From positions 1-64,000 of the forward strand of contig JAKFUT010000092.1 in assembly GCA_021732565.1 (NCBI GenBank): a stretch of 64,000 nucleotides of DNA, read 5' to 3'. The DNA is from Candidatus Obscuribacterales bacterium. Lineage in GTDB: Bacteria; Cyanobacteriota; Vampirovibrionia; Obscuribacterales; Obscuribacteraceae. Shown here piece by piece: positions 25,181 to 41,224 of the stretch. Under the pieces are notes generated by a model. It was not told where the DNA came from and searched no databases. It saw nothing but the letters and a program-made list of their open reading frames with translations. Within the stretch, counting starts at the first letter, position 1. Each line of letters opens with the position of its first letter. Made by a program: the position numbers and the translations under genes.

Positions 25181-25971
25181 TGTGTCCGATACAGAAAACT
25201 AGCAGGTTGATAGGCCCGAGCCGGACGATTCTAGCGTACTTGTATCAAACGAATCCAGGTTGCGACCATCGTGTGTCCATCCTTTTTGCGAGCGCGAATG
25301 TTCGGGGAGTCGAGCTGCAGATCTGCCGGTCTTCTTTTGTCGCCGTATCCTCCGGACCCGCGTCAGGTAGCCCGTCAGGAACTGTTACTTTAAACGTTTC
25401 TCGTTGTGTTTTAGGAGAAATAGGGACAGCGCTACTATTATGGTTCCTAATGCCAGGCAAAATACGGCGATTAGAGCAAAGAATTCACGCGACTTCGGGA
25501 AGTCTTAATTACTTCAGGCGGGGAAGCCACAAAATAGATCAAGATAGAGCTGACCCGAACAATCGCCCTCGGTATGGTCGCGAGATTGGTTAATCGGGGT
25601 TGCGGCTAAATGACTGGTTAGAATTTCCATTTAATGTATCGCTAACTGGAATGCAACAATGTCTATACAATTTGACGCTAGTGTATAGGCAGGAAGAGCA
25701 AGTCCACGGTCCGGAAGCACGGGCGGGCAGCATACCTGCCGAGTGCGGACTATTTGGTTTGGCGGAAATCTATGTAACTGATCGAACTTAATTCAACGCC
25801 TATCGGCAACTGCTGCCACGGCAGCATGCGCCGGCTGTGGCCTCAAAATATTTTGACCTGGTGTTTCGCCGTCGCTATTGAGTTCGGTGAGCATCAGTTC
25901 GCCGTGAACCATTAGACCTCAACGATTTGAATGCACACATCGATTATCGGATATATTCACCTGGAGCTGCA
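25181..25971. other. Intergenic region upstream of the giant gene
   Basis: About 790 nt. A short palindrome tgctgccacggcagca lies at 25811-25826. Frames such as 25180-25593 and 25600-25791 show no SD and no family features. The region should contain the promoter for the giant gene; no clear -35/-10 pair was identified. Confidence 0.45.
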
Positions 25972-28900
25972 ATGAGCGACGATCTGACTAGTACCGATTT
26001 GCCTTATGATTTCGGATATGAAGATGCTGATGATGATGACGGGCAACCTGCCTCACTGCCCGACCTTGTACCAGGCTTACTCGATGATGCTGCCGCATTG
26101 AGACACCTTATTGCCCGCGTTCCGGTGGGCGGTGCGCTTGGCGGCACTAATTATCTGGACGCTTTTAGAGATTTACTCAAGTCTGCCGGGGATACTTTAC
26201 CGGAAGAAGAAGAGCAACCTCAGGAAGATGAAGATCCCGGTGAGGAAAAGAGCACCGAGACTCGACCCGATGGTACGATCGTTACAACCTACGAAAACAA
26301 TTCCACATTTGAACAGCGCAAAGATGGCAGTTCCATTTCGCGAAATAAGGATGGACGAATAGTCTCCATTCGAACCGCAACTGGCGATGTTATGTCTTTT
26401 GGATACGACAAGGACGGAAAGATAAATAGTTTTCGCACCGCAGACGGTATATGGACAAGTGATGACGGCAAGACCTGGAAGCATAGCAATTTAATGCTTG
26501 GCCAGTCACATCCGGACTGGAAGGGAACGCTCAATCTATCAAAAGAAGGAGTTCTGGAGCGTACCGATGAAAAACAGGAAACCATTCACAGTCTGCGACT
26601 TGACGGGACCTGGACTCTGAAGGACAAAAACAATAGAATCCTTCAGGAGCTTAGCGGCGACGGTACAAATACACGCAACGCTTATTCTGAAGCGGGTACT
26701 CTAACGTCCAAGCTCGAGCAGAAAAGAGATGGCCTTATCACGGTGACCGACAGCAATGGCAAGCTCACTGAAGTTTATCCTATAAATGGTTCGTTCAGAC
26801 AGATTGAGCGTTCGCCCGAAGGAAAAGTCACCGGGATACAAATGTCGAATGGCACTCGTTGGGAATCAACCGACGGCAAAACATTCAAACACCCGAACGG
26901 CGAAACGATTACCGGGCAGCCTGAGCTAACAACCGACGGTAGTGTGCAGTTCAAACAGTCGGACGGAAAAATTCTTCGCCTTAACCGCGATGATTCCAGA
27001 GAACTTCTTCAAGGTAGCAAGCTACTCGAGAAAACCAATGCCGATGGTACAAGAATAGTTTTTGACGAGTCGGGTCGTGTTCAGAGAACCGTCGCGCCAA
27101 ATGGACAAATTCGCGTCTTCGGGTATACGGGCAATCGACTTACTTCCGTGCAAGATCCCGATGGAACCATCAGATGGGCCTCGTCAGACGGAAAGGCGTG
27201 GACGAAAGCAGGAACGCGCGAAGCAGTCAATGAAGAGCGCTCTGTTTCGGCCGATGGAATCTACACTTCCGTAAGGGCGGATAAGAGCAGCCTCTCTGTC
27301 AGACCGGACGGATCCAGTGTGAGCAAAGATGCTTCCTCGCGAGTCATGTCGGTTACAGACAAACTCGGTCGTACAACTACTTTCGGTTACGACACGGCTG
27401 GAAAGCTGAACAATGTGAAGTATCCGGACGGCAAAGAACTATCGACCACAGACGGAAAGACCTGGAAGAACAAAGAAACGGAGCAAACCGTTGAAATTGA
27501 ACTCTCAGTTTCAATCAACGGCACTCTGACGGAAAAGTCTGAACATCCGGAAAAGACTGTGGTCAGAGAGCTAGACGGTTCACGGCAAGTCACTGATCGA
27601 AACGGTACACGCCGACTTGAGCCACGCAACGATGGTTCGACTGTTATCACAGATCCAGCCGGCCGCGTCACTCAGGTGTTAAATGGCGACGGCACCGCGA
27701 AATACTACCGATACAACTCGGGTGGGCGTGTGGTTGAAGTTAGCGAAGGAATCGCTAAAGATCTGAACGACCGCGAAAATATTACTTGGACAAAAACGCT
27801 CACCACTGCCGACGGCACTACCTGGAAAAGTCACGACGGGAAGGAAGAATGGCGGGGACAGGTTTTTGTCGGTAGGGACGGAAGCGAGCAGCGCAAGGCT
27901 CAAGATGGAACTGTCACTCGCGCTGCAAGCGATGGAGCGATTGTTAGCACCAACAAAGACGGCCTGGTTACCTTCGTGCGATGCACAGGCGGCAGAGAGA
28001 TTCATGCCGAATACACTGATGGTAAGTTAACGAAATTCAAGAACGGCAACTCCGAATGGACCACTACTGATGGTGGCAAGACATGGAAATCAGGTAACGA
28101 AACCTTTGAAGGCGGGATCAGGTTACTCGCCGACGGTACCATAGAAACTACGACTAATGACCGAGTCTACCAGTACAGACCGAATCATGGACAAGTTGTA
28201 AGCGACAAATCCGGAAAGGTGCTTCAACGATTATTGATCGGAGAAACTCCGGTCGAGTATTCCTACGAGACCAACGGTCGAATTAAGGAACAAACAGAAA
28301 CCCTTGCCGACAGAACAAGAGTTACCAAAGATGGCAGCGGCAATATTGTGCGCGTCTCGCTTCCTAATGGTGAATGGAGACAGTTTGAAAGGGGTGCCGA
28401 CGGACGTGTCGTCGCGATAAGGGAATCGAACGGTACAGCTTTCACATCTGTAGACGGCCGATCGTTTCGCTTGCAAGGCACCGATAATGTCTTTACAGGG
28501 CGCCTTGAGATATCGCCTTCCGGTGCATATAACTTCCACACAGTGGATGGCACTCGCCTCGAACGCGGTCTAGACGGGGCTATACGCGTCTTTGACGGCG
28601 ATGGCAAGCTACGTTCATTGACGTCGGCCGACCGCAGACACGTAGCCTACGATGAAACAGGCCGGGTTACAGAAACGATTGATCCAAACGGCAATCACCG
28701 AAAGTACGCTTACAAGGAAAATCTGCTCGTTTCAATCACCGAGCCCAACGGTGCTGTCTTTAGCAGCGTAGACGGTAAAGCCTGGAAACAAGTCGGCGGA
28801 CCGCGCTCGGCGGAAAGTGAGCGCAACGGTACCTATGCTCTCGATAAAGAAGGTAATTTGACCTTCACCAGAGCAGACAACCGCAGGTTCGTTCATGGAA

Positions 28901-31900
28901 ACAACGGTTCCAGTATAGAATTTGCTGCTTCCGGTTTGCCGGCTTGCATTAAGTACCCGGACGGATCTGTTCGCAACGTCGATTATAACGACAAGGGTGA
29001 AGCCACTAGAGTCAGGCACCCTAATGGTGATACGTGGAACAGAATTTCCGAGAGAGAATGGCAAAAAGCCGGCACTAATGAAAAATGGCAAGGAACTCTT
29101 GTATTTAATCGCGATGGAAGCTACAAAGAAACCGCTGCCGGCAGTGAACGCGAGTACAGAGCAGATGGTTCAATTGAAGTTAGAGACCGTGACGGCCACC
29201 GCATCGAGAAGAAGAATAACGACGGTTCCTGGACTATTCGAAATGATAAGGATCAGATAACCGCTACCTGGGATGCGGCTGGAAAGTGGCGCCGATTCGA
29301 GTACGATGCGAACGGTCGTATGGTTAAGACTACCGACGCACAGGGAACTTGGAGCACCACCGATGGTACAACCTGGTCTCACGACAAACTTGGCAAGCGG
29401 GAACAACTCAGTTTCAATCTGACACAAGACGGTGTGCTTCGCATGGAGTCGCCGGACGGCAAAGCGATCACCCGAAATACCGATGGTTCCTCAATTGAAA
29501 CCGACAAATCGGGCAAAATACTTAAGCAAATTGCTGCTAACGGAAAAGAACGAACCTTCGAATACGATAGAGACGGTCGACTGAATAAAGTAGTTCAGCC
29601 AGACAATTCTGTCCTTGTCACCAGTGATGGTGGCAAGACATGGACTAAACAAGGCGATGAGAGCGGGTCCAAATATTCCGTTGAAATGATCGGCGCTGGT
29701 GGATTTGCCGTCACCAACACTCAAACCGGCGAACGCATCGAATCCTTCTCAACCGGACGCGTACTAACAACCGACCGATCAAAGCGTGCCGCGGTTGATG
29801 TGAAACCCGACGGTAGTTATACCAAGTGGACTTATGGCGAAGGGCGCGTACCACAGTCCACCGAGAGAGGCCTTGCCGACGGGACCATTCTTTGGGCAAA
29901 TGACAAAGGTCAGATCGTTAAGACAAAGACGCGCGACGTCGTCAGAGAGTTCGCCTACGATGACAAAGGCAAGCTCAACTATGTGAAGGGACCGGACGGT
30001 ACCGAATGGCGTTGCCGAGACGGCCAGCGGTGGTTTCGCAGTGGTTCTAATGTTGCCTGGATCGGCGAATTAGGCGTCACCCCCGATGGTGACTTTATCT
30101 GCAACGATAAGGAAAAAGGAGAGAGTAGTCTCTATAAACGAGACGGCAGTGTATTAGTTCAGACTACCGAACCTCAGACCGCGCGGTTCTATAATGTAGA
30201 AGGCCGGGTAGTCGAAACGCGTGACTTTGCCGGAAAGCTAAAACAGTACGGTTATGATTCAACCGGTAAATTAAACCGCTTTGTCGAATACGAAGGAAAT
30301 CCGCCGGCTGCAAAAGTTTGGACTTCGACCGACGGAGAAAATTGGACTTCGGGCAATCAAAAAATGAAGGTCCGCCTCTCTGTCGACTCCGTCGGCACCC
30401 TTTCCCGGAGCGACTCTGCCACCGGCCGAGCGATTGTGGAAAGGTTAAAGGAAGCGCCCATCCGTATCAACCCGGAGACCACCGGTGCAACTGCTGAAGC
30501 AATTCGAAAGGCGTTATATCCCGGACAGAGAGTTATAGATGCCGTCGACAATCCCACCGGCAACAGATACGTTGATACGGCCATTGACGTGCTTGCTTGG
30601 ACCAACCCGCTCTTTTATGTGCAACGAGAAGCGGTTCGCTCAACCACGAAAGTCTATCAAAATCTCGCCAAAGACTGGCAGTACATAGAAAACGCCCTCA
30701 AGAATCTGTCCGAACCGGAACGGGAAGCTCTAAAAGCGGATTACAAACGCCGATTCGGCGTGGAACTGGAAGCAGAGCTGAATACTTTCAAATCGGAAGC
30801 AGAATGCGAGAAAACGCTTAATGCTCTCAAACGCAAAGACGGAGAGCCGGACTATGCCGGAAACATTCATGCTGCTATAACGGAGCTGAATCAATCTTTC
30901 TTCGGCCGGTCGAGAACCAATTGCGAAAAGGACATAAGAGACACGATTTCGCGCTTGAGTTCAAATCAAATTGCCAAGCTCGAGGAGGAGTATCGCAGGC
31001 GTTATGGCGTTTCTCTCGAGCAGGCTTTATTGCGTGGAGATTTGTCGTCCTTTTCGAAGGAAGCTTTGAAAATTCAGCTGAAAGGCACCGATGAAATACG
31101 CAAGAATCCGGACCTCACGCTAGAGCTTGCTGACTTGGCGATAAAGAACCGTAGTGTGGAATTGTTCGAAGAAGCCTTCCGCAGTGCTTCGCCGGCAGCT
31201 CGAGCCAAGTTCAAGGAACAGAATGGCGAGCAACGACTCAAGAATGCTTTTGAAGGTCATTGGTATAACGCGCTCTTACTTGCCCATCCATTGTTGCAAC
31301 TGACCGCCAATGCCCTTGATGTGAATACCAATATTACTGACACCGATTTGCGTCATGTGATGGATTATGCTCAATACGGAAAATTGTCGACCGCCACTCA
31401 GGTGCGCGATAACACCTCCTGGTTGGGCGACAATGAGAAGGCAATTGAGTCTTCGCTTCACAATATGAGCGAGGAAGAGCGCAAGCACTACATGATCGGG
31501 CAAGCGCTTGTTCGCGGAGACGAGGACAAAGACATCGTTCGACGTTTTCCCGACTTCGACAAGATGCCGGATGCGGATAAGCAGAAGGCTCGCGACTTTT
31601 ACAACACGTTGCACAATGCACTTGATCGCGCAGCCGGAATCTGGTTCTCGAGACAATCCCAACAGGCGGAAATGGCTAAGTGGGAGGACATGATTTCGCA
31701 AAAAGGCGGCGGCATCATTTCCAAGATAGCCGATCACGTTGGCATGATTTACAACTCGGGCGACCAGAAAGTCATTCACGACATCGAGAAGATAAGCAAA
31801 GCAGACTGGGAAGCATTGCACAAATTGCCCGCTGCAGAGCGCGCCGAGAAACTCGCGGCCCTTGAGCAATTGATTACAAGCTTCAAGGGTGCGGCATTCG

Positions 31901-34900
31901 CTGAGAGATGCATGGGTCTGCTTCGCGAGAAATTAGCGGCGACCAGCTACGAAGATGCGCAAAAAGTCGGAAGGCGGACGGTGCTTCAAACACTGACGGA
32001 TAATGATCACTGGTATGGCAATAACAAAGAATATGTCTATGAAGCGATTGAAAATATGCCAGCGGCGGAAAGGGCGAAATATTACGATGCCAACGATACA
32101 ACTTATCGAGATCAACTAAACAGAGAATTAGAGAAATTCCTTGGCAAAGGAGCGACTCTAGACTCGGCTCTGGCGATGCTGGCACGGGGGTCCAAAGATA
32201 AAGCTCCAGTAATGGACCCTCTGGATAAGCTAAATCTGCGCATTTTGCAGAACGATGAACAGCGCCGCTACGTTAACGCCGGGCAAGCAGCATTAACTGG
32301 ACCTGGTGGAACGGTTTCTCTATTGACCGGTGATCGCTCTGTCCAAATGGCGGGTCAAGCAAGCGGACTTCTGACCAACTACCCTGCCGATGCCGTACGA
32401 GACCTCGCGGAACTCTTCAAAAAAGATCCGGAGTCTTATCGAACGTTTAAAGCGAAGTATGACAGTGATTCTGAATACCGAGGAAAATTCCTGGCTGCCG
32501 CGCGATCTTTGTATCCTCTTCAACTGCAGTTCGACCGATATATAAAGCCTCTCATCGAAAAAGGTGAATTGAAACCGGAGATCTTAGCGGGGTTGCGTGT
32601 CGGAATACTTTCAGATGACGATGCCGGATTCATGAAAGATTTCGCCGGAATGTCGGCAGCTGACCGCAACGCTCTTCTTCAAGATGAAAACCGCTTGAAC
32701 GTCGCTTTCAGCGCGTTAAGCGGCAGGGAAAGAGAGGTGGCAACCAATCTGCTGCGCCAGGGCAAGGCTAATCCGGAGGATCTTGCAAGGGCCTGCGTGA
32801 TCGGATTTGGCACCAGGAAAGAGGAAGTAATTCAAGCCTGGAAAGATCTAAAACCGGAAGAAAGAGAAGCGGCCAAACTGGCCTATGCGCGTAAATATGG
32901 ATCAGATATTAGTTTGGATTTACGAGGCAAAATTGGAGCTGACGAGGCCGAAGACATTCTCGATCGCCAGGGAAGCCCCGAGGAGCGACTCGATCGGATT
33001 CTGCAGCGCTATTACCGTAGTTATGACGGAATCGGCAAATATTTCGTAGATACTTTTTGGGATGGAACCGGTCATCAGAGCCGGGATATGACAAACCAGC
33101 TAGTTGCCATGCAGGCGGAGTACAGCTCCGTGTTTGAACGCATGAAAGACACGCCGGAATTCAAAGAAAAGATGGAAGCGCTGGTAAAGGCACTCAAGGA
33201 TTTCAAAGAATCAAAAGAGCAAATGGCCGATGCGGTTGTCGATGCTCTAATTGCGGTGGCAGCTGTCGGTGGAGCTTTCTTCACGGGCGGGGCAAGTCTC
33301 AGCTTGCTGGCCGTTACTGCCATCGCCGGTGCGGCATTAAAAGTTGCCGTGAAGGCCGGAATCATGGGCGCCGATTACAATTGGAATAGTGCCCAACCAC
33401 TGATTGATGCATTAACTGGAGCTTTTGATGCTGCCACAAGCTTCATCGGACCGGGAGAGATTGCCGCACTTTGCCGCATGGGCGAACAAGCAGCTGCCAA
33501 AACAGCCAAAGCGGCAATAACACAGGTAGGCAAAGCGGTATTGAGAGACGGCGCAGAAAAAGCAATTGAAAAAGAACTGGCCGCCATGATGCGCAATGCC
33601 CTGGCTACCGGCTCAAAACATCTCGATGAAAAGGCGCTGGAAGCTCTGGCAATGAGAGCCGTAAAGGAAGGAGACGCCGCGGCGGTAAAGGCGCTGACGC
33701 AAGCTCTAAAGACTAATCTTGAGTCTACTCTCAAAACGGAAATGCAAAGCGTCTTGAAGAATCTAGCTAGAGAATATCTCTTGATCATGTCTTCCGGTGC
33801 ATTAGGCGGTGGCGTGTCGGGCACCGTACGCGGTATGGCAGAGTGGGATCCGAACCTCAGCGTGTCAGATAATCTTCAGCGTGTCGCCACCACCGGTGCG
33901 ATGTCGGCCGGTATTGGAGCTGGTGCCGCTGGTGCGTTCACCACCGTCTTCAAAGTCGGCGGTGCAGCCTGGCGTACAGGCAGAGGATTATTCAAAGCCG
34001 CCCCTCACGGGGAAGGTGGCGCGGTACATGTTCACCCTGAAGGCGGGCATGGTCCGGGTCACGGACCCGGAGAGGGCGGGCACGCTCCGGCGGAAGGAGC
34101 CGCTGTAAGGCCGGCTGAAGGCGTCAGACCGCATCCTGATGCACATCCGCTGCAACCTGGCGATGCAAAGTTGCCGCGCCCGGCCGAAGTCCACGGACCG
34201 GTTCAGGCGGAAGCTGTTCGTCCGACCAATGATTTTGCCAACGGGCACCAGATGAAAGAGCGAATTCCCGATGGTTTCACCAATGCCGGTGCGGGAACCG
34301 AAGTGCATCCGTCAGGCAAGTTTGACGCGCCCAGGGCCGCGGTTGTAGTCGATCGCAAGGCAGATCAAGTATTGCGCAATACTGTCAACGAAGCTCGCCA
34401 GCATTTGGAAGAGTTGACGCGCCAACGTGGACCATTGACACCGCAACAAAAGATGGAAGCCTTAACCGAGTTTGTGCGCAGCAAGTTTCCGAAAAGCGGT
34501 TCTGGAGGCCAGGACGCCAACAGGCTATTCGCTGATATGTATGCCACTTTCATGGCTGAAAACGCCGGCAAGCGTGTTCCTCTAGGTGAGTTCATCAAAG
34601 GTGGCATGGGCGGCTGCTCAGAGCAGGCATTGCTTCTTAAAGTCTTAGCCGATGATCTTGGCGTGCACGGAGTGACGCTTGTACGAGGAAACGGCACCGG
34701 AACTGGTGCGTCTATCAATCATGTGTGGGCCACCCTCGATCAAGGTGGAGGTAAGCCAGCGCTGGTATTTGATCCAAGGCAAAATACAATTGGCCGGCCA
34801 TACTCAGACATGCCCGGGCGTTACACACCAGGGGCTGATATGTCTACGCCACGCCTCAAGCCGGATCATACTGCCACCGCAGGTGAAGCGGGCGGCTGGC

Positions 34901-36405
34901 GAGTCGTTCGTGAAACCCCCGACGGAAAGGTGGTGGTTCAGCATGACGGAGCCCGCGTTCTTAGCCGCGAGCAAGCGTCTGCACTGGTTGAACTGAATCC
35001 GCAAATTAGAGAACAGGGTCTGAAGGTCGGGCAGGAATATCGCATCAGAAAACCGGATGGAACCGTTGAAGGCGGCTGGAAGGTTCAAGGTATTAGCGAG
35101 TCGGGCGAAGTCGTCCTGGTAAAACAAAACGCCGTCGAGATGACGGTACCAAAGAGCCAGCTTCGTCGCCTTAATCCTGAGTTGTCCGCACATACTCCGA
35201 CTGCTGAGGAAACGGCGTTGTTGCTCAAGAACGCCAAAAATCTGGACGAACTAAATGATGCTGCGCTGCACGCTCTAAGTCATCCCGACGACCCTAAGGT
35301 GAAGGCAGCGCTTCAAGAGCGCCTTGAACGAGAGCTTAAGGACCCGGCCGGGAAAATTTCCGCTCACGATTTAGCAGGAATAATGGATGATTTCAACATC
35401 AAACCAAACGCTGAAATGCAGGCCGCGTTGAAGAAGAGAGTGATAAGTGAGATTGGAAATTCTCCTGAGCTATTTCACCCGGACAAACTGCATCAACTTA
35501 ATCAAGCCCTCGAGAAGCTTGGATTGAAGTCTGATAAGGAAGTGGGTGAAGCTCTGGTGAAACGCTTCGCTAATGAAATTGAGCATAATGCCGCTTTGTT
35601 CCATGGTGATAATTTAGACACCATGCGGTCGTTGATGATGCAGATGAAGCTTCATGAACAACACGTCGTTCGCGAAGCATTAGAGCGGCGGATTGCTGCT
35701 GAGTTCGCGAATAATCCCGACTTGTTTCGCGGCGGGAACTTCGATTCATTACGGGGCTTGCTCAAGGAGGCGAACCTGGAGCAATCGACAGTCGTGAAAA
35801 ACGCGTTAAGAGACAGGGTCGCCCATGAAATGCGAACCGGTGATCTCGCTGATGTGTTGTCTACAGGGCGCATGAAGGACCTCTGTAAGCAATTGGGACT
35901 CAATAATGAACCGGTCATTAAAGACGCTCTTTGGAACAGGGTAAGAACGGAGCTAGGTGACAACCCCGGTTCCAAGACCGAGCTGCTTGGTCGCTTGAAG
36001 AATGCGGCTGAGCAATTTGATGAGCCCAGGGCGTTCAACCAGGTCCGTTATTATGAGATGTTCGACACGGTTTCGGATTTTGAGTGGATCGTGAAGCTCA
36101 ACGATAAAAGCCTTGGCGACTTGAATCAGATCGGTCGCCTGAAAGGCCAGACTAGAATGGGAATGTCGCCACACCACTTTGAAGACACTTTCCTGAGACC
36201 GTTTGGTTTCCGAGGAAAAGAAGTCGGCAGAGGAAAGCACAACCAGGGTATCTTCGGGCCCGCTGGACAGCTCACGGTAGATGGCATACCAATTGGATAT
36301 GCAATCAGGCACGGTGGCAATGAACCGGATAGCGTAAAAGCGGCCTATCAAAGAGAGTTCCTCAAAGCGCTGGAAACGGCTATATTGAGAGGTGATCATA
36401 AGTAA
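25972..36405 (+). CDS. Giant RHS-like polymorphic-effector-type protein with transglutaminase-like and C-terminal HicA-like domains
   Basis: 3477 residues from ATG 25972 (TGGAG 6 nt upstream; an in-frame TTG at 25927 is weaker). In order: an acidic N-terminus without signal peptide (1-95); about 14 YD/RHS-like repeats with 'DGkxW' inserts (about 95-1485); a long charged helical region with annexin-like xxYxxxYGxxLxxxL patterns (about 1490-2420); hydrophobic Gly/Ala segments (about 2420-2470 and 2605-2680); a His/Gly/Pro linker (about 2680-2755). Next come a transglutaminase-like domain (about 2790-2970) with Cys2882, His2917 and Asp2934, a small beta region, about five helical repeats of about 45 residues (about 3090-3340), and a C-terminal domain (about 3390-3477) with GRGKHN and IRHGG. 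The architecture fits a contact-dependent or secreted effector. A HicB-like gene follows at 29 nt, as an immunity gene would. The secretion route is unknown. Confidence 0.85.
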   Translation: MSDDLTSTDLPYDFGYEDADDDDGQPASLPDLVPGLLDDAAALRHLIARVPVGGALGGTNYLDAFRDLLKSAGDTLPEEEEQPQEDEDPGEEKSTETRPDGTIVTTYENNSTFEQRKDGSSISRNKDGRIVSIRTATGDVMSFGYDKDGKINSFRTADGIWTSDDGKTWKHSNLMLGQSHPDWKGTLNLSKEGVLERTDEKQETIHSLRLDGTWTLKDKNNRILQELSGDGTNTRNAYSEAGTLTSKLEQKRDGLITVTDSNGKLTEVYPINGSFRQIERSPEGKVTGIQMSNGTRWESTDGKTFKHPNGETITGQPELTTDGSVQFKQSDGKILRLNRDDSRELLQGSKLLEKTNADGTRIVFDESGRVQRTVAPNGQIRVFGYTGNRLTSVQDPDGTIRWASSDGKAWTKAGTREAVNEERSVSADGIYTSVRADKSSLSVRPDGSSVSKDASSRVMSVTDKLGRTTTFGYDTAGKLNNVKYPDGKELSTTDGKTWKNKETEQTVEIELSVSINGTLTEKSEHPEKTVVRELDGSRQVTDRNGTRRLEPRNDGSTVITDPAGRVTQVLNGDGTAKYYRYNSGGRVVEVSEGIAKDLNDRENITWTKTLTTADGTTWKSHDGKEEWRGQVFVGRDGSEQRKAQDGTVTRAASDGAIVSTNKDGLVTFVRCTGGREIHAEYTDGKLTKFKNGNSEWTTTDGGKTWKSGNETFEGGIRLLADGTIETTTNDRVYQYRPNHGQVVSDKSGKVLQRLLIGETPVEYSYETNGRIKEQTETLADRTRVTKDGSGNIVRVSLPNGEWRQFERGADGRVVAIRESNGTAFTSVDGRSFRLQGTDNVFTGRLEISPSGAYNFHTVDGTRLERGLDGAIRVFDGDGKLRSLTSADRRHVAYDETGRVTETIDPNGNHRKYAYKENLLVSITEPNGAVFSSVDGKAWKQVGGPRSAESERNGTYALDKEGNLTFTRADNRRFVHGNNGSSIEFAASGLPACIKYPDGSVRNVDYNDKGEATRVRHPNGDTWNRISEREWQKAGTNEKWQGTLVFNRDGSYKETAAGSEREYRADGSIEVRDRDGHRIEKKNNDGSWTIRNDKDQITATWDAAGKWRRFEYDANGRMVKTTDAQGTWSTTDGTTWSHDKLGKREQLSFNLTQDGVLRMESPDGKAITRNTDGSSIETDKSGKILKQIAANGKERTFEYDRDGRLNKVVQPDNSVLVTSDGGKTWTKQGDESGSKYSVEMIGAGGFAVTNTQTGERIESFSTGRVLTTDRSKRAAVDVKPDGSYTKWTYGEGRVPQSTERGLADGTILWANDKGQIVKTKTRDVVREFAYDDKGKLNYVKGPDGTEWRCRDGQRWFRSGSNVAWIGELGVTPDGDFICNDKEKGESSLYKRDGSVLVQTTEPQTARFYNVEGRVVETRDFAGKLKQYGYDSTGKLNRFVEYEGNPPAAKVWTSTDGENWTSGNQKMKVRLSVDSVGTLSRSDSATGRAIVERLKEAPIRINPETTGATAEAIRKALYPGQRVIDAVDNPTGNRYVDTAIDVLAWTNPLFYVQREAVRSTTKVYQNLAKDWQYIENALKNLSEPEREALKADYKRRFGVELEAELNTFKSEAECEKTLNALKRKDGEPDYAGNIHAAITELNQSFFGRSRTNCEKDIRDTISRLSSNQIAKLEEEYRRRYGVSLEQALLRGDLSSFSKEALKIQLKGTDEIRKNPDLTLELADLAIKNRSVELFEEAFRSASPAARAKFKEQNGEQRLKNAFEGHWYNALLLAHPLLQLTANALDVNTNITDTDLRHVMDYAQYGKLSTATQVRDNTSWLGDNEKAIESSLHNMSEEERKHYMIGQALVRGDEDKDIVRRFPDFDKMPDADKQKARDFYNTLHNALDRAAGIWFSRQSQQAEMAKWEDMISQKGGGIISKIADHVGMIYNSGDQKVIHDIEKISKADWEALHKLPAAERAEKLAALEQLITSFKGAAFAERCMGLLREKLAATSYEDAQKVGRRTVLQTLTDNDHWYGNNKEYVYEAIENMPAAERAKYYDANDTTYRDQLNRELEKFLGKGATLDSALAMLARGSKDKAPVMDPLDKLNLRILQNDEQRRYVNAGQAALTGPGGTVSLLTGDRSVQMAGQASGLLTNYPADAVRDLAELFKKDPESYRTFKAKYDSDSEYRGKFLAAARSLYPLQLQFDRYIKPLIEKGELKPEILAGLRVGILSDDDAGFMKDFAGMSAADRNALLQDENRLNVAFSALSGREREVATNLLRQGKANPEDLARACVIGFGTRKEEVIQAWKDLKPEEREAAKLAYARKYGSDISLDLRGKIGADEAEDILDRQGSPEERLDRILQRYYRSYDGIGKYFVDTFWDGTGHQSRDMTNQLVAMQAEYSSVFERMKDTPEFKEKMEALVKALKDFKESKEQMADAVVDALIAVAAVGGAFFTGGASLSLLAVTAIAGAALKVAVKAGIMGADYNWNSAQPLIDALTGAFDAATSFIGPGEIAALCRMGEQAAAKTAKAAITQVGKAVLRDGAEKAIEKELAAMMRNALATGSKHLDEKALEALAMRAVKEGDAAAVKALTQALKTNLESTLKTEMQSVLKNLAREYLLIMSSGALGGGVSGTVRGMAEWDPNLSVSDNLQRVATTGAMSAGIGAGAAGAFTTVFKVGGAAWRTGRGLFKAAPHGEGGAVHVHPEGGHGPGHGPGEGGHAPAEGAAVRPAEGVRPHPDAHPLQPGDAKLPRPAEVHGPVQAEAVRPTNDFANGHQMKERIPDGFTNAGAGTEVHPSGKFDAPRAAVVVDRKADQVLRNTVNEARQHLEELTRQRGPLTPQQKMEALTEFVRSKFPKSGSGGQDANRLFADMYATFMAENAGKRVPLGEFIKGGMGGCSEQALLLKVLADDLGVHGVTLVRGNGTGTGASINHVWATLDQGGGKPALVFDPRQNTIGRPYSDMPGRYTPGADMSTPRLKPDHTATAGEAGGWRVVRETPDGKVVVQHDGARVLSREQASALVELNPQIREQGLKVGQEYRIRKPDGTVEGGWKVQGISESGEVVLVKQNAVEMTVPKSQLRRLNPELSAHTPTAEETALLLKNAKNLDELNDAALHALSHPDDPKVKAALQERLERELKDPAGKISAHDLAGIMDDFNIKPNAEMQAALKKRVISEIGNSPELFHPDKLHQLNQALEKLGLKSDKEVGEALVKRFANEIEHNAALFHGDNLDTMRSLMMQMKLHEQHVVREALERRIAAEFANNPDLFRGGNFDSLRGLLKEANLEQSTVVKNALRDRVAHEMRTGDLADVLSTGRMKDLCKQLGLNNEPVIKDALWNRVRTELGDNPGSKTELLGRLKNAAEQFDEPRAFNQVRYYEMFDTVSDFEWIVKLNDKSLGDLNQIGRLKGQTRMGMSPHHFEDTFLRPFGFRGKEVGRGKHNQGIFGPAGQLTVDGIPIGYAIRHGGNEPDSVKAAYQREFLKALETAILRGDHK
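26254..30420 (+). repeat. About 14 coding repeats of about 100 aa (YD/RHS-like core plus 'DGkxW' insert)
   Basis: Each unit carries a YD-like core (for example FGYDKDGKINSF, FEYDANGRMVKT, FEYDRDGRLNKV), then a proline/asparagine-glycine turn, then a tryptophan motif of the form (S/T)(S/T)DGxxW(K/T). Examples are TSDDGKTWKH, ASSDGKAWTK, STTDGKTWKN, SSVDGKAWKQ, STTDGTTWSH, VTSDGGKTWTK and TSTDGENWTS. Canonical YD repeats are about 20 residues and lack the tryptophan insert. The spacing here is about 100 residues. Confidence 0.85.
35240..35990 (+). repeat. Helical tandem repeats of about 45 aa near the C-terminus of the giant protein
   Basis: About five units with the pattern ALxxRxxxEhxxxxxhhxxxxhxxLxxhhxxhxh. 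Examples run from ALKKRVISEIGN, ALVKRFANEIEH, ALERRIAAEFAN, ALRDRVAHEMRT and ALWNRVRTELGD. They sit between the transglutaminase-like domain and the C-terminal domain and may form an alpha-solenoid spacer. Confidence 0.7.
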
Positions 36406-36434
36406 GTGGCGAAGACCGAACTTGGGAGGAAAGA

Positions 36435-36773
36435 ATGACAAAAGGTCGCATAGAACGAACAGCTATTTGCTACTTCGATAAAGAGGATGACTGTTTCGTG
36501 ATCAAGTCGCCTCTGGCATTTATCTGCGCCACAGGCGAGAACGCAGAACAAGCCCGAGCACATTTCAGTAAAGAGCTTGAGGCTTGCGGGGTCTCACCGG
36601 ATGCCGAGCAACGAATTGCCGAGGTTGTATTATCGTCGGCCGACGATCAGATACATCCGTTGGCAGCCACCTACTTGAATAAACTGGCGCGAGAATTGGG
36701 ATGCACGCGTGGGCAGGCTATTGAATATCTTGTACTTTTTCATCAAGTAGCCGAGCTTCCTGAGAATAAATAG
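36435..36773 (+). CDS. HicB-like / ribbon-helix-helix protein, candidate immunity partner of the giant protein
   Basis: 112 residues from ATG 36435 with GGGAGGA at good spacing. The N-terminal half (AICYFDKEDDCFVIKSPLAF, then a helix NAEQARAHFSKELEACG) follows the HicB antitoxin pattern of a degenerate RNase-H-like strand-strand-helix fold. The C-terminal half (YLNKLARELGCTRGQAIEYLVL) looks like a ribbon-helix-helix DNA-binding segment, a common HicB partner domain. It starts 29 nt after the giant gene stop, so the two are very likely co-transcribed. No separate hicA gene flanks it; the only candidate HicA is the C-terminus of the giant protein. It could instead be a regulator of the locus. 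Confidence 0.75.
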   Translation: MTKGRIERTAICYFDKEDDCFVIKSPLAFICATGENAEQARAHFSKELEACGVSPDAEQRIAEVVLSSADDQIHPLAATYLNKLARELGCTRGQAIEYLVLFHQVAELPENK

Positions 36774-36812: not shown

Positions 36813-39800
36813 TTACTCGATAACAACAATCGGTAACCCAAGGTCTTTGATTTGCGACCATAGTGGTCGTGGAACAACGAGTGATCCTTGCCCTGCAGTT
36901 GCTTTCAGCCAACTGGGACTTTCACCGCTGCCGGTTAGTGCTGCCGGATTGCCAAGACCTTCCAGGACGATTGATCGCCCTTGTCTTACAATTGCCAAAC
37001 CGGCAATGGTCGCATTGCTGATCTTGGATTCGTTGTATCCCTCGAGCGGGCTTCCGTCTCGTTCGGTAGTGAGTGCTTCTATGATTGTCTTATGGGCTCT
37101 CGCCAATGGACTGTCACTACCAGCGGTGCGATTCAATTCATCAAGGTTGTTAAAGCCGGCCAGTTGCCTTCGCACTTCATTGAGCGCTGTAAGCGGATCT
37201 GTGCCGAAGCCCAGTTTCTGAAGCTTCCCACCAACTTCCACAGCTAGTTCCCGACCACCTTGCGCAGCCCAAGATCTGGCTAAACGAACATGTCCGTGCC
37301 AACCCACTCCGCTGCCCGAGTAGGTCGAATCTCGTGATGCCTGTGCCGTTGACTCAAAGGGCCCTTTCAAAATTGGAAACATACTGTTCCCATTGTCAAA
37401 CAGAAGTCCATGTCCCGGTCTGATAATGGAGACGGAAGCAGAGAATTCAGGCGATTCAACAAGCGATCTCTGACGGAAGAAACTAAGTAGATCCGGTGTA
37501 GTGTGAGCATAAAGTACGTAGTCACCGGCAACAACCATTGTAAATCGGCCCGGCAACGCAGAAGTTAAGACCGGCAAAACATGGCTACCTGACTGCGCAA
37601 CTTCTGCTGCAAGAGCTTTAGACATTGCATCAAGCTCAGTGGCAACCTCGGCCGTGAACAACTTGTCGCCATTTGCCACCGCGCGAATATCGGCTTTATT
37701 CATAAGGCGCAACTGTTCGACAGCATATGGATTTCTATAACGAACGGCCAATTCTCCGATGTGTTGCGCATTGGCTGCTCGATCCGCGACCGGTTCACCC
37801 GGCCTGTAACTCGCTTCGGTATGCCAGTTTATCAGTTCAGCTATGCGAGTGATTTGTTCGGGCGAATATCCAAGCGTTCCTAACACTCCGTGTGCAATGC
37901 TGGCCGATGCCTTTTCATGCCCGGGGTCGTACACCCCGGCTCGCTTGCCAGTATCATGAAGGAGCACCGCCCACAAAACATTCGTTTGAGCATGCGGGGG
38001 GAGTTTATGGAAATCGGCATCGGCTCGCAGCTTCTCGATTGCTCTTATCGTATGCGCATCAACAGGAAGGTCGTGGGCGCCAACCTGTGGTCGGCCGACA
38101 ATCCCGCCGTCGGCGTGATCTCCAAAAACACGAGGAAATAGCTTGCCCAATTCCCCACTTCCCATAAGCTGAGCGAGTTTTTGCGGTTCCAGAAAAGCTG
38201 ACTCCACTGTTGCTCGCAGTTGGCTCTGCTCCGTTTCAGAGAGATGCGTCAGCCGTGGCATTCTTAACTCGGGCAGTCGAACCATATGGGGTTCCAATAT
38301 ACGGCTGCGATGAAGGGCCGCTACTTCACGACCGGCAAAAGCACGCCAACCATAGTCGTGGCTGGCATTTGCCAATGTCTCATTCACTGGTCGCCAGACG
38401 TTCTTCTCGAAAACCGCCGGTGCTGTAGCAGTGAATCTTCCGGCCAGAGAGAATGCCAGTGAAACTCTTGGTTCGGTTGACGTGGTTGGTTGTTCTAAAA
38501 CGGCTTGTCCAAGCATTTTAGCTATTTGAACTCGTTCTCGAGCTGAGGCGGTTGTGAACATTATTCCTAAAGCATCCTGCACCATCGTGTGATCAACGGT
38601 TTCTGCACCCACCCTTCCGTCCAATGCCTTGCGCACTGCGCGGGCCAGGGAGGCCTCGTGCAGAGTGCTTACCAGCTCACTTGACTGAACAATAGAGTTC
38701 ATGTCTCCAGCGTTGCGAGCAACTGCTCTAAGAACCTCGGGCTTGGTGACTGCCAAATTCTCACCGAGAACGCGCGAAGCAACGTTACTTTGATCGAACA
38801 TAAGGCGAGATAAGAAATCGGCCGGCAACACTTCAGCCATAGCGTGGCGATGAGCGGGCTCAAGTTTCGCCCACCATCCCCGTACTGCCACTAGATCTTC
38901 ACCGCTGAGCCTTTGCACCTGGCCAAAGGTTTGAGCGATCACTTTTATTGGTTCTCCGGCTGCAGGGATTTTCTCTACAGCGTACAACGGCATCATCGAG
39001 AGCAATTCGCTGCGCAGCTGGCCTGACGAAAATTCGCCGATCTGTTTTGCTAAGAATGGAAGATGCTCAGGGGGAACATCTCTGAATACGAATGACAAAT
39101 CGCGAGAGGGAAAGTGTTTGAGAGCGTGCACCATTGCGGCTGCTCGATCACCGGGTGGCAGGCTGTGAATGTCGTTGATGAGCAAAAGTGGTTCTCTTGT
39201 CGAGGCGCTTTGTTTCCACACCTCGAGGGCGGGCGAGCCCAGCGGTTCTTGCAGTGGGCTTTCCAAAAGCGCTCGTCGTTGTGACTCAACTTCCTCAGCT
39301 TGAATCCTTGTTACTTCTCTACGGTAATTAGTCCGGTTCATCATGCCGCCGGGAATAGCGGCGATACCGTCAAGGGTGCCTTGCAGTAGAGCTCTTCTTA
39401 CGACTTCACTGTAATCAATTGACTGCCCGCCTAAGGTTTTTTGACGATTGATTTCGCCGATCGCACCAGATGTGATTCCGAAAATGCCACCATTTAGTAT
39501 GGTGGCTGTGAATGGAGAGGACGAAAGGTTACCGAAGAGTCCGTGCTGAATCAGATGCGAGCCACCGAAGATGAGTATGTCGGCTCGAATTGCATCTTTG
39601 TTACACGTCTCTTTCTTTACTTTTGACAGTCCTGCCTGAAAATCGTAGTTTCCGTCTTTGTCTATGTATGTTTGACGATTGAGCCCGGTTTCCAGTGAGC
39701 GCATGCTCATGCCCAGAAGAACACCCTTAGTTGCAGGGCTGAGGTGAAAGTAGTTAGAAGTGGCAAATATTCCGCGCAGAGCCAGCCCCTTCGCCGCGCC

Positions 39801-40130
39801 CAGACCGCCGTCCATAACCTGGTTTTCCAGGCTGTCACCCCACTTCACCGAATCTAAGACGTTCACTCCCACAGTGGCGATGACACCATATTTTCCGGGC
39901 ATGAAGAGTGCTGCCGTCTTGGCCATTCCACCGGCATAGTGGACAAATTCCTTGCGCGCGTTTTTGTTTTCAGGGCTTTCTTTCCAGACGGTGCTCAAAA
40001 GTCCGTCAATGCCGCCTTCGAGCAAGCCGGGCTTTACGGGTGGACCGTCAATGACCTCGACATTTAATTGTCCTCCGCTAAAGAGAGGACTAACAGATAA
40101 CCTGGTGGTAGATTCGAAGGATGATTTCAT
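36813..40130 (-). CDS. Large HD-domain protein, function unknown
   Basis: 1105 residues; AGGAA is 6 nt before ATG 40130. The N-terminal third (about 60-240) is Gly-rich with several hydrophobic stretches (MAKTAALFMPGKYGVIATVG, LGAAKGLALRGIFA, GGIFGITSGAIGEI) and could associate with membranes or form pores. The middle is helical. An HD phosphohydrolase-type domain lies at about 690-800: VDAHTIRAIE, LLHDTGKRAG (HD codons at 37953-37958), HEKASASIAHGVL and ELINWHTE, like the HD domain of GlnD uridylyltransferases and related enzymes. HD domains hydrolyse phosphoester bonds with metal; the substrate is unknown. The gene is convergent with the giant protein/HicB-like pair (39-nt gap) and divergent from a kinase gene, so it may belong to the same locus. 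Confidence 0.75.
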   Translation of the reverse strand: MKSSFESTTRLSVSPLFSGGQLNVEVIDGPPVKPGLLEGGIDGLLSTVWKESPENKNARKEFVHYAGGMAKTAALFMPGKYGVIATVGVNVLDSVKWGDSLENQVMDGGLGAAKGLALRGIFATSNYFHLSPATKGVLLGMSMRSLETGLNRQTYIDKDGNYDFQAGLSKVKKETCNKDAIRADILIFGGSHLIQHGLFGNLSSSPFTATILNGGIFGITSGAIGEINRQKTLGGQSIDYSEVVRRALLQGTLDGIAAIPGGMMNRTNYRREVTRIQAEEVESQRRALLESPLQEPLGSPALEVWKQSASTREPLLLINDIHSLPPGDRAAAMVHALKHFPSRDLSFVFRDVPPEHLPFLAKQIGEFSSGQLRSELLSMMPLYAVEKIPAAGEPIKVIAQTFGQVQRLSGEDLVAVRGWWAKLEPAHRHAMAEVLPADFLSRLMFDQSNVASRVLGENLAVTKPEVLRAVARNAGDMNSIVQSSELVSTLHEASLARAVRKALDGRVGAETVDHTMVQDALGIMFTTASARERVQIAKMLGQAVLEQPTTSTEPRVSLAFSLAGRFTATAPAVFEKNVWRPVNETLANASHDYGWRAFAGREVAALHRSRILEPHMVRLPELRMPRLTHLSETEQSQLRATVESAFLEPQKLAQLMGSGELGKLFPRVFGDHADGGIVGRPQVGAHDLPVDAHTIRAIEKLRADADFHKLPPHAQTNVLWAVLLHDTGKRAGVYDPGHEKASASIAHGVLGTLGYSPEQITRIAELINWHTEASYRPGEPVADRAANAQHIGELAVRYRNPYAVEQLRLMNKADIRAVANGDKLFTAEVATELDAMSKALAAEVAQSGSHVLPVLTSALPGRFTMVVAGDYVLYAHTTPDLLSFFRQRSLVESPEFSASVSIIRPGHGLLFDNGNSMFPILKGPFESTAQASRDSTYSGSGVGWHGHVRLARSWAAQGGRELAVEVGGKLQKLGFGTDPLTALNEVRRQLAGFNNLDELNRTAGSDSPLARAHKTIIEALTTERDGSPLEGYNESKISNATIAGLAIVRQGRSIVLEGLGNPAALTGSGESPSWLKATAGQGSLVVPRPLWSQIKDLGLPIVVIE

Positions 40131-40258: not shown

Positions 40259-41224
40259 ATGCAGGAGCAAATGTCTTGGGTCGGGCTGCAGGTGGGCGAT
40301 TATCTGGTCGAAGAGCAATTAGGAGAAGGGGCGTTTTCCTACGTTTACAGGGCATTTGACTTAACCGGTTTGAAGCCGGCGGTAGCAATAAAGGTTTCGA
40401 AACCGCCTGAATTTATTTCGCTAAACCGTAAAGTACGAGCAACTTCGGCTAAAGTACTGTGGTCCGGTTTCGTACAAGACGTGCATCCCGATAGCGCAAA
40501 GCTGTTGTCTATTCAAGCAAATAAACTTCGCTCATTTCAACATTCGTCTCTTCTAAAAGTGGAAACGCCAGTCACTGATAGCGGTGGCTGCTATTACATT
40601 ATGGAACTGCTCCAAGGGCAGACACTTCGCCAAATTTGGGAAACCGCTGCTGTGCCCGGCCATCTCCTTCTGAGACTCGCTGTTTCGTTATCCGAACTGA
40701 GCCACGTTCACGGTTGGGATTTTCATGGAGATCTAAAGCCCGAAAATATTTTTGTCACGGGCGATAGATTAGTTCTTCTTGATCCGGGATTCTTTGGCAA
40801 GATTCAATGCCGCGAGGGCGATCTGCAGGTGTCCGTCACTACGCCGGAATATTATCCTGATCTGCAGCCCGATGATCTGTTAGCTTTCGGAATCATAATT
40901 TGGGAAGCCGTTTGCGGTGTTCATCCGCTGTTATCGGGGCAGGATGCTGCTAACGATCTGCCTCATTCTCTTGGAGAAGATGTTCTGCAACAAATTGAGG
41001 CGCGGGAGCTAGCCGGGCGATTCGAACTTTCGCCTCTCCGCCGACTTCAGAAGCCGGAGCAGACTAAGCCGTGGCTCAATCCGCAATTGCGCAATTTGCT
41101 TCTCAAGGGACTCCGGCTCGAGGAAGAGAATGGAAAAATTCATAGGAATGAAGGCTTCAAAAGTTTTGACGAGGTCGTAAATGAGCTGTCGCCACTGCTA
41201 AATCAACTGCAATGTTCAGGGTAG
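40259..41224 (+). CDS. Small Ser/Thr kinase-like protein with HGD and DPG motifs
   Basis: 321 residues from ATG 40259, preceded by GGAGGAG 6 nt upstream. It is a soluble kinase domain with no TM. The P-loop GEGAFSYVY and the VAIK lysine (Lys45) are intact. The catalytic loop reads HGDLKPENI (Gly for the usual Arg). The magnesium motif reads LDPGFFG (DPG for DFG). The activation segment TTPEYYPD lacks the normal APE/SPE. Asp and Asn of the catalytic loop and the metal-binding Asp are kept, so activity is possible. Activation by loop phosphorylation is unlikely because RD-kinase Arg is missing. It is divergent from the HD-domain gene with a shared promoter region of 128 nt. Confidence 0.85.
   Translation: MQEQMSWVGLQVGDYLVEEQLGEGAFSYVYRAFDLTGLKPAVAIKVSKPPEFISLNRKVRATSAKVLWSGFVQDVHPDSAKLLSIQANKLRSFQHSSLLKVETPVTDSGGCYYIMELLQGQTLRQIWETAAVPGHLLLRLAVSLSELSHVHGWDFHGDLKPENIFVTGDRLVLLDPGFFGKIQCREGDLQVSVTTPEYYPDLQPDDLLAFGIIIWEAVCGVHPLLSGQDAANDLPHSLGEDVLQQIEARELAGRFELSPLRRLQKPEQTKPWLNPQLRNLLLKGLRLEEENGKIHRNEGFKSFDEVVNELSPLLNQLQCSG

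What the first reader, a model, noticed from the sequence alone, without database searches (positions are those of the whole stretch)
36000..36773. HicA-like C-terminus on a giant RHS-like protein, with a HicB-like partner gene directly downstream
Seen: the last about 85 residues of the giant protein contain a GF...GRGKHN...GQLTV...IRHGG pattern, reminiscent of the HicA GSHH motif and following strands. 29 nt downstream is a 112-aa gene with a HicB-like N-half and an RHH-like C-half. Known: polymorphic toxins carry a C-terminal warhead matched by an adjacent immunity gene; HicA RNases are neutralised by HicB. Inference: a chromosomal HicAB module has been converted into an effector/immunity pair by fusing HicA to a delivery protein. 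The HicA resemblance is by eye and weak; the HicB-like call is stronger.
Basis: partly seen in the sequence, partly recalled or inferred. Interest (0 to 1): 0.8.

Follow-up and report, generated by a model that had tools for sequence, protein, structure and literature searches.

The report
HicA-like warhead on a giant protein
A bacterium related to cyanobacteria appears to have attached an RNA-cutting 'toxin' of a common toxin-antitoxin pair to the end of a huge modular protein, leaving its antidote gene next door, which suggests that ordinary self-poisoning gene pairs can be turned into weapons against neighbours; toxicity and delivery are still untested.

Summary
Confirmed: a 3492-aa RHS-repeat ORF (25927-36405) ends in a ~79-aa basic domain and is followed 29 nt later by a 112-aa ORF. 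Neither hits Pfam HicA/HicB directly. Both are, however, homologous to the two genes of a divergent stand-alone HicA-HicB-like family of Obscuribacterales; 20 of 26 such HicB-like loci have the HicA-like ORF directly upstream. That family matches canonical HicA (hhalign 90-93%; shuffles at most 1.9%) and HicB (96%). The tip keeps the G-x-H motif needed for HicA toxicity. The giant's transglutaminase-like core, with intact triad, is shared by a polymorphic family (131/136 core pairs similar, 3/300 tail pairs). A related giant ends in a HigB-like tip followed by a HigA gene; three sister-species giants end in HigB. Best reading: a TA operon grafted onto a giant polymorphic-toxin-like protein, toxin as C-terminal RNase tip, antitoxin as immunity. 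Not shown: fold of the tip (structure search found no HicA), binding, toxicity, export (no trafficking domain, N-terminal hydrophobic segment or T6SS sheath found). New variant of a known kind.

The parts
25927..36405 (+). Giant RHS-repeat protein gene, 3492 aa (TTG start; ATG at 25972 gives 3477 aa)
   Evidence: PF05593 RHS_repeat E 2e-41, 10 stretches
33223..33366 (+). Only strongly hydrophobic segment of the giant (aa 2433-2480); possible membrane-interacting hairpin
   Evidence: Kyte-Doolittle scan; function inferred
34177..35211 (+). Conserved core of the giant family (about aa 2751-3095): transglutaminase/papain-like domain plus a following domain; candidate releasing protease
   Evidence: matches in 26 of 53 genomes of the order, E down to 9e-52; Pfam EDR1_CTR1_ARMC3_pept aa 2804-2922 E 5e-6; triad C2897/H2932/D2949 intact and conserved in 28 of 29 members
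35212..36057 (+). Helical repeats between core and tip; outside this protein found only as a broken copy in contig C114 of the same genome
36166..36402 (+). HicA-like C-terminal tip (aa 3414-3492), pI 9.2
   Evidence: HMM of stand-alone HicA-like family E 9.6e-6, rank 1 of 1156; hhalign to that family 95.5%; pI
36232..36240 (+). G3436-K3437-H3438, the G-x-H motif equivalent to Gly22/His24 of B. pseudomallei HicA
   Evidence: sequence; alignment A3; importance of Gly22/His24 from PMC3969222
36425..36429 (+). Shine-Dalgarno GGAGG, 5 nt before the partner's ATG
   Evidence: sequence
36435..36773 (+). 112-aa HicB-like partner: HicB N-domain (aa 1-50) and two helices of an RHH-like C-part (aa 75-106); candidate immunity protein
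   Evidence: HMM of stand-alone HicB-like family E 7e-18; AF2 pLDDT 85.8; Foldseek best hit 2dsy (TTHA0281), prob 0.97, 1.4 A over 48 columns; lacks the GRPxKG linker present in its stand-alone relatives

Best explanation
The locus encodes a polymorphic-toxin-like giant whose interchangeable C-terminal tip was taken from a divergent HicA-HicB-type toxin-antitoxin operon. The toxin-first gene order lets an in-frame fusion of the giant's 3' end to hicA leave hicB intact as the next cistron. Proposed action: the giant carries the tip to another (probably kin or neighbouring) cell; the intact transglutaminase/papain-like domain upstream of the tip, or a target protease, releases the tip; the tip cleaves RNA with its G-x-H histidine; in the producer the 112-aa HicB-like protein, translated from its own ribosome-binding site 29 nt downstream, binds and blocks the tip. 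The partner has lost the GRPxKG linker of its relatives, consistent with a change from autorepressor-antitoxin to dedicated immunity protein. Shown: architecture, pairwise and family homology, gene order, recurrence of TA toxins on giants of this order. Inferred: RNase activity, neutralisation, proteolytic release, delivery.
For: Tip's closest relative in the order is a small ORF in G305 whose directly downstream gene is the homologue of the 112-aa protein. Two-row profiles find the same pair adjacent in G310, G336, G341 and G312; 20 of 26 HicB-like loci have the HicA-like ORF ending 0-80 nt upstream. Family versus canonical HicA: 90-93% (score 33-35, 40 column shuffles max 13.7); versus canonical HicB: 96% (score 56, shuffles max 18); crossed controls about 0.2%. 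Bridge member G336:C103 hits Pfam HicA_toxin 23.8 bits, E 4.7e-5, over 2-55 of 58. The HicB-like profile retrieves canonical HicB genes, several next to GSH-motif HicA genes, in other Cyanobacteriota. Carrier: shared core 131/136 pairs, tails 3/300 pairs; triad conserved. Second capture: a G343 giant of the same core family ends HigB-like and is followed by a HigA gene (88.7 bits); three sister-species giants end in HigB_toxin PF09907 above cutoff; a Zeta_toxin domain lies in the C-terminal part of another.
Against: Tip and partner alone hit no HicA/HicB model. Tip model has modest confidence (one of five models at 75.6, others 52-60) and no HicA match in the PDB. Several stand-alone relatives lack the histidine, so catalysis in this subfamily is uncertain. 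No trafficking domain or N-terminal hydrophobic segment in the giant and no T6SS sheath in 25 relatives. Many other giants of the family end in segments with no toxin-like match, and three HigB-tipped giants have no HigA within about 1.2 kb. Only one genome shows the HicA fusion.
Confidence: 0.6

Rival explanations
1. Intracellular defence device: the giant is not exported; it is a sensor-carrier that keeps a HicA-type RNase inactive, and phage infection or damage triggers the transglutaminase-like protease to free the tip (abortive infection), with the HicB-like protein as ordinary antitoxin.
For: No signal peptide-like segment, trafficking domain or T6SS sheath found; HicA domains in many contexts are proposed to act in anti-phage defence, including SMC-HicA fusions (PMC10865869); kinase genes near many giants.
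Against: RHS repeats, conserved core with mutually unrelated C-termini, and toxin plus adjacent neutraliser at the 3' end are the pattern of polymorphic toxins (PMC3482391).
Confidence: 0.22
2. Decayed graft: the tip derives from HicA but is no longer toxic; the partner persists as a relic or regulator.
For: Remote similarity, variable histidine in relatives, a broken copy of the giant's helical region in the same genome, and HigB-tipped giants without a nearby HigA.
Against: Open frame of 3492 codons without a stop, retained G-K-H motif, retained partner gene with a strong ribosome-binding site.
Confidence: 0.12
3. Tip and partner are an unrelated effector/immunity pair that only superficially resembles HicA and HicB.
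For: No direct family hit; structure search of the tip found nothing.
Against: Both genes independently match the two genes of the same stand-alone modules in the same order, with shuffled and leave-out controls; partner fold matches 2dsy.
Confidence: 0.06

Closest known systems
HicA-HicB type II toxin-antitoxin modules (PF07927 HicA_toxin; HicB with RHH domain, Class 4 of Gerdes 2024, PMC10865869)
   Same: Gene order hicA then hicB, small basic toxin domain with G-x-H, antitoxin with HicB N-domain and RHH-like helices
   Different: Toxin is the C-terminus of a 3492-aa protein rather than a free 60-80-aa protein; sequences too divergent for the curated models; partner lacks the GRPxKG linker of its closest relatives; none of the 14 HicA contexts in that survey is an RHS giant
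Polymorphic toxin systems with RHS repeats (Zhang et al. 2012, PMC3482391)
   Same: RHS repeats, protease-like domain before the tip, shared core with divergent C-terminal tips, small neutraliser gene downstream
   Different: Tip and neutraliser derive from a TA operon; HicA/HicB do not occur in the held text of that survey and RelE is reported there in a single instance; the transglutaminase-like triad is intact here, while that survey describes inactive transglutaminase domains; no known trafficking domain
HigB-HigA toxin-antitoxin modules (PF09907) as tips of related giants
   Same: TA RNase toxin as C-terminal tip, antitoxin gene next door in G343
   Different: Different toxin fold; in the sister species no HigA gene lies nearby. 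HigB-like and other TA-type domains were already reported among eCIS-associated toxins (PMC11297309)
SMC-HicA fusions (Class 14 of Gerdes 2024)
   Same: HicA domain at the C-terminus of a large protein
   Different: Carrier is an SMC ATPase thought to act inside the cell; no RHS repeats

Membership tests
HicA toxin family (PF07927) | Match to the curated HicA model | tested here: not met
   Tip: no hit at E<=10; only a stand-alone relative reaches 23.8 bits against a cutoff of 27. I therefore call the tip HicA-like, not a member of PF07927
HicA toxin family (PF07927) | Homology at the level of family profiles | tested here: met
   hhalign of the tip's family with 26 canonical HicA: 90-93%, shuffles at most 1.9%
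HicA toxin family (PF07927) | Essential Gly and His of the beta1-beta2 turn (G-x-H) | tested here: met
   G3436-K-H3438 aligned there; essentiality from PMC3969222; the motif is degenerate in several stand-alone relatives
HicA toxin family (PF07927) | dsRBD-like alpha-beta-beta-beta-alpha fold | tested here: inconclusive
   Predicted order of elements agrees, pLDDT 75.6, but Foldseek finds no HicA
HicA toxin family (PF07927) | RNase activity and growth arrest | not testable with these tools
   needs expression
HicB antitoxin family | HicB N-terminal domain fold | tested here: met
   AF2 pLDDT 85.8; best PDB match 2dsy prob 0.97, rmsd 1.4 over 48 columns; family versus canonical HicB 96%; profile retrieves canonical HicB genes. 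That 2dsy/TTHA0281 is a HicB-type protein is my own knowledge
HicB antitoxin family | C-terminal DNA-binding domain (RHH or HTH) in Classes 3 and 4 | tested here: inconclusive
   Two RHH-like helices predicted and aligned with relatives, but the GRPxKG linker is lost and the strand region is of low confidence
Polymorphic toxin system | Conserved carrier with exchangeable C-terminal tips | tested here: met
   131/136 core pairs similar, 3/300 tail pairs similar
Polymorphic toxin system | Toxin tip followed by its neutraliser gene | tested here: met
   By homology only; second case HigB-HigA in G343
Polymorphic toxin system | Trafficking domain or secretion signal | tested here: not met
   No known trafficking domain in Pfam scan, no N-terminal hydrophobic segment, no T6SS sheath in 25 relatives; other routes not tested. 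I therefore call it polymorphic-toxin-like

The most novel reading that the evidence does not exclude
In Obscuribacterales, type II toxin-antitoxin operons with toxin-first order (HicAB, HigBA) have been grafted repeatedly onto the 3' ends of giant polymorphic proteins, turning toxins into delivered RNase warheads and antitoxins into immunity proteins that lose their DNA-binding and autoregulatory parts. This would make the TA-to-effector transition directly visible, with donor-type modules still present as stand-alone operons in relatives.
Probability: 0.4. Interest if true: 0.75.

Novelty: new variant of a known kind. Interest (0 to 1): 0.6.

Why it matters
Toxin-antitoxin modules and polymorphic effector/immunity systems are usually treated as separate worlds. 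Here the stand-alone TA family, the fused giant, and a second independent TA graft coexist in one bacterial order, so the route from selfish or defensive TA module to inter-cell weapon can be traced and tested. It adds a context to the 14 described for HicA domains, and predicts that an antitoxin turned immunity protein should lose autorepression while keeping toxin binding. It also points to a large, little-described family of giant proteins in non-photosynthetic Cyanobacteriota.

Tried and rejected
PDB sequence search with both family profiles: nothing meaningful. Fold search with the tip model: nothing. Phylum-wide weak hits to the tip are unrelated ORFs where read. Plasmids (partner) and phages (tip) by tblastn: no match; the phage query had one N-terminal letter mistyped (T for F), outside the tip. 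An assembly chimera was considered: the frame runs unbroken through helical repeats into the tip and G+C does not change (0.49-0.51); not excluded without reads. A search for stand-alone relatives of the G343 HigB-like tip found none.
Full report
WHAT IS THERE. The + strand carries one open frame of 3492 codons, 25927-36405, with RHS repeats (PF05593, E 2e-41, 10 stretches) and a transglutaminase/papain-like stretch (EDR1_CTR1_ARMC3_pept, aa 2804-2922, E 5e-6). After the stop come 29 nt containing GGAGG and then a 112-aa ORF at 36435-36773. Neither the C-terminal 115 aa nor the 112-aa protein matches Pfam or NCBIfam usefully, so the HicA/HicB call needed independent support.

THE PAIR HAS STAND-ALONE RELATIVES. 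In the 53 available genomes of the order (related public records are titled Candidatus Obscuribacterales), the tip's best match was a small ORF in G305; the gene that follows it is a homologue of the 112-aa protein (E 1e-8 in a single comparison). Two-row profiles of each protein then found many HicB-like genes (23 of 53 genomes) and, independently, HicA-like ORFs directly upstream of the same genes in G310, G336, G341 and G312. Of 26 HicB-like loci examined, 20 have a HicA-like ORF ending 0-80 nt upstream; three of these (L047, L062, L050) were not used to build the model.

CONTROLS. An HMM of stand-alone HicA-like proteins, without the window, ranks the tip first among 1156 six-frame pieces of the window (E 9.6e-6, next unrelated 0.24); an HMM of stand-alone HicB-like proteins ranks the 112-aa ORF first (E 7e-18, next 1.2). 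Removing the relative found by similarity to the tip gives E 5e-5, and removing also the four found by the two-row profile leaves the tip still first, E 0.015. Models of canonical HicA and HicB do not see either protein significantly; the link runs through the stand-alone family.

LINK TO CANONICAL HicA AND HicB. Profile-profile comparison of the HicA-like family with 26 PF07927 members from related genomes gives 90.3% (92.7% without the window row), score 33-35, against a maximum of 13.7 in 40 column-shuffled controls; the HicB-like family against 20 canonical HicB gives 96.4%, score 56.5, against 18.2; crossed comparisons give about 0.2%. One stand-alone member hits Pfam HicA_toxin over 2-55 of 58 positions, E 4.7e-5, slightly below the curated cutoff. 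The HicB-like profile retrieves small canonical HicB genes in other Cyanobacteriota, several of them next to HicA genes with the usual GSH motif. The predicted structure of the partner (pLDDT 85.8) is beta-beta-beta-alpha plus two helices, and its best PDB match is 2dsy/TTHA0281 (prob 0.97), which I know as a HicB-type protein. The tip's model has the order alpha-beta-beta-beta-alpha (with an extra short strand) but modest confidence and no PDB match: inconclusive. The tip keeps G3436-K-H3438 at the place of the Gly22 and His24 that are required for toxicity of B. pseudomallei HicA (PMC3969222); in several stand-alone relatives the histidine is absent.

THE CARRIER IS POLYMORPHIC. The region about aa 2751-3095 recurs in giant frames of 26 of 53 genomes. 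The Cys-His-Asp triad (C2897, H2932, D2949) is intact here and conserved in 28 of 29 members. Cores resemble one another in 131 of 136 pairs, the last 120 residues in 3 of 300 pairs. The window tip is one such tip. Others include a Zeta_toxin domain in the C-terminal part of one giant (PF06414, E 5e-15). A giant of the same core family in G343 ends in a HigB-like segment (14 bits) and is followed, with a short overlap, by a HigA gene (88.7 bits). In the sister species of the window's genus, three giants with no detectable similarity to the window giant end in HigB_toxin (PF09907) above the curated cutoff, without a HigA gene within about 1.2 kb. Many tips have no recognisable function, and some end in a hydrophobic segment.

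MECHANISM. Most likely a TA operon was captured by in-frame fusion: the giant's 3' end joined to hicA, with hicB left as the next cistron. The product would be a carrier with an RNase tip, held in check in the producer by the HicB-like protein and perhaps released by the transglutaminase-like domain. All 16 stand-alone HicB-like proteins in alignment A4, and 25 of the 26 loci overall, contain a GRPxK linker (an AT-hook-like motif) before the RHH-like part; the window partner lacks it and is shorter (112 aa, pI 5.0) (L038 and L060 carry the motif, as searches show, although the first-Met trimming cut it off). This fits loss of autorepression but is inference. Delivery is unknown: no trafficking domain, N-terminal hydrophobic segment or T6SS sheath was found. 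An intracellular anti-phage device is the main rival.

PRIOR ART. The survey of polymorphic toxins (PMC3482391) contains no HicA or HicB in the held text, reports RelE as a tip in one instance, and describes inactive transglutaminase domains in such proteins. The survey of HicA contexts (PMC10865869) lists 14, including SMC-HicA fusions but no RHS or polymorphic-toxin context. HigB-like and other TA-type domains have been reported among eCIS-associated toxins (PMC11297309), so TA-type toxins as payloads are not new in general. The library holds open-licence papers only, so earlier reports may have been missed.

VERDICT. New variant of a known kind, interest 0.6.

Noticed in passing
G321:C10:8851-18492, G321:C10:81322-91863 and G321:C42:1482-7505 (L187-L189): Three giant proteins (3213, 3513 and 2007 aa frames) of the sister species end in a HigB_toxin domain above the curated Pfam cutoff, with no HigA gene within about 1.2 kb.
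   Followed up: partly
G343:C116, L191 5906-6938: A giant of the same core family ends in a HigB-like segment and is followed, with a short overlap, by a HigA antitoxin gene: a second TA graft.
   Followed up: partly
G312:C138 (L103, L128, L132) and G295:C1 near 882820 (L118, L140): Open frames of 17,447 aa (still open at the contig end) and 9,897 aa with the transglutaminase-like core; the first has at least two copies. Among the longest bacterial frames if the assemblies are right.
   Followed up: no
G000:C114:1-1000 (L145): Broken copy of the window's locus in the same genome: a fragment of the giant's helical region next to remnants of the 1105-aa HD-domain gene found at window 36813-40130; tip and partner are missing.
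   Followed up: partly
window 40259-41224 and directly downstream of L104, L105, L113, L136 and L149 giants: Protein-kinase-like genes lie near or directly behind many giants of this family (PF00069 E 2e-10 for the window gene); a functional link is possible.
   Followed up: no
L029/L036 and about 40 loci in the order: A divergent stand-alone HicA-HicB-like family, mostly below Pfam cutoffs, whose HicB-like proteins nearly all carry a GRPxK AT-hook-like linker; the toxin's histidine is lost in several members.
   Followed up: partly
G320:C34 (L124, L143): A giant with a Zeta_toxin domain (E 5e-15) in its C-terminal part, then a C39-peptidase-like end, followed immediately by a 171-aa ORF that could be its immunity gene.
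   Followed up: no
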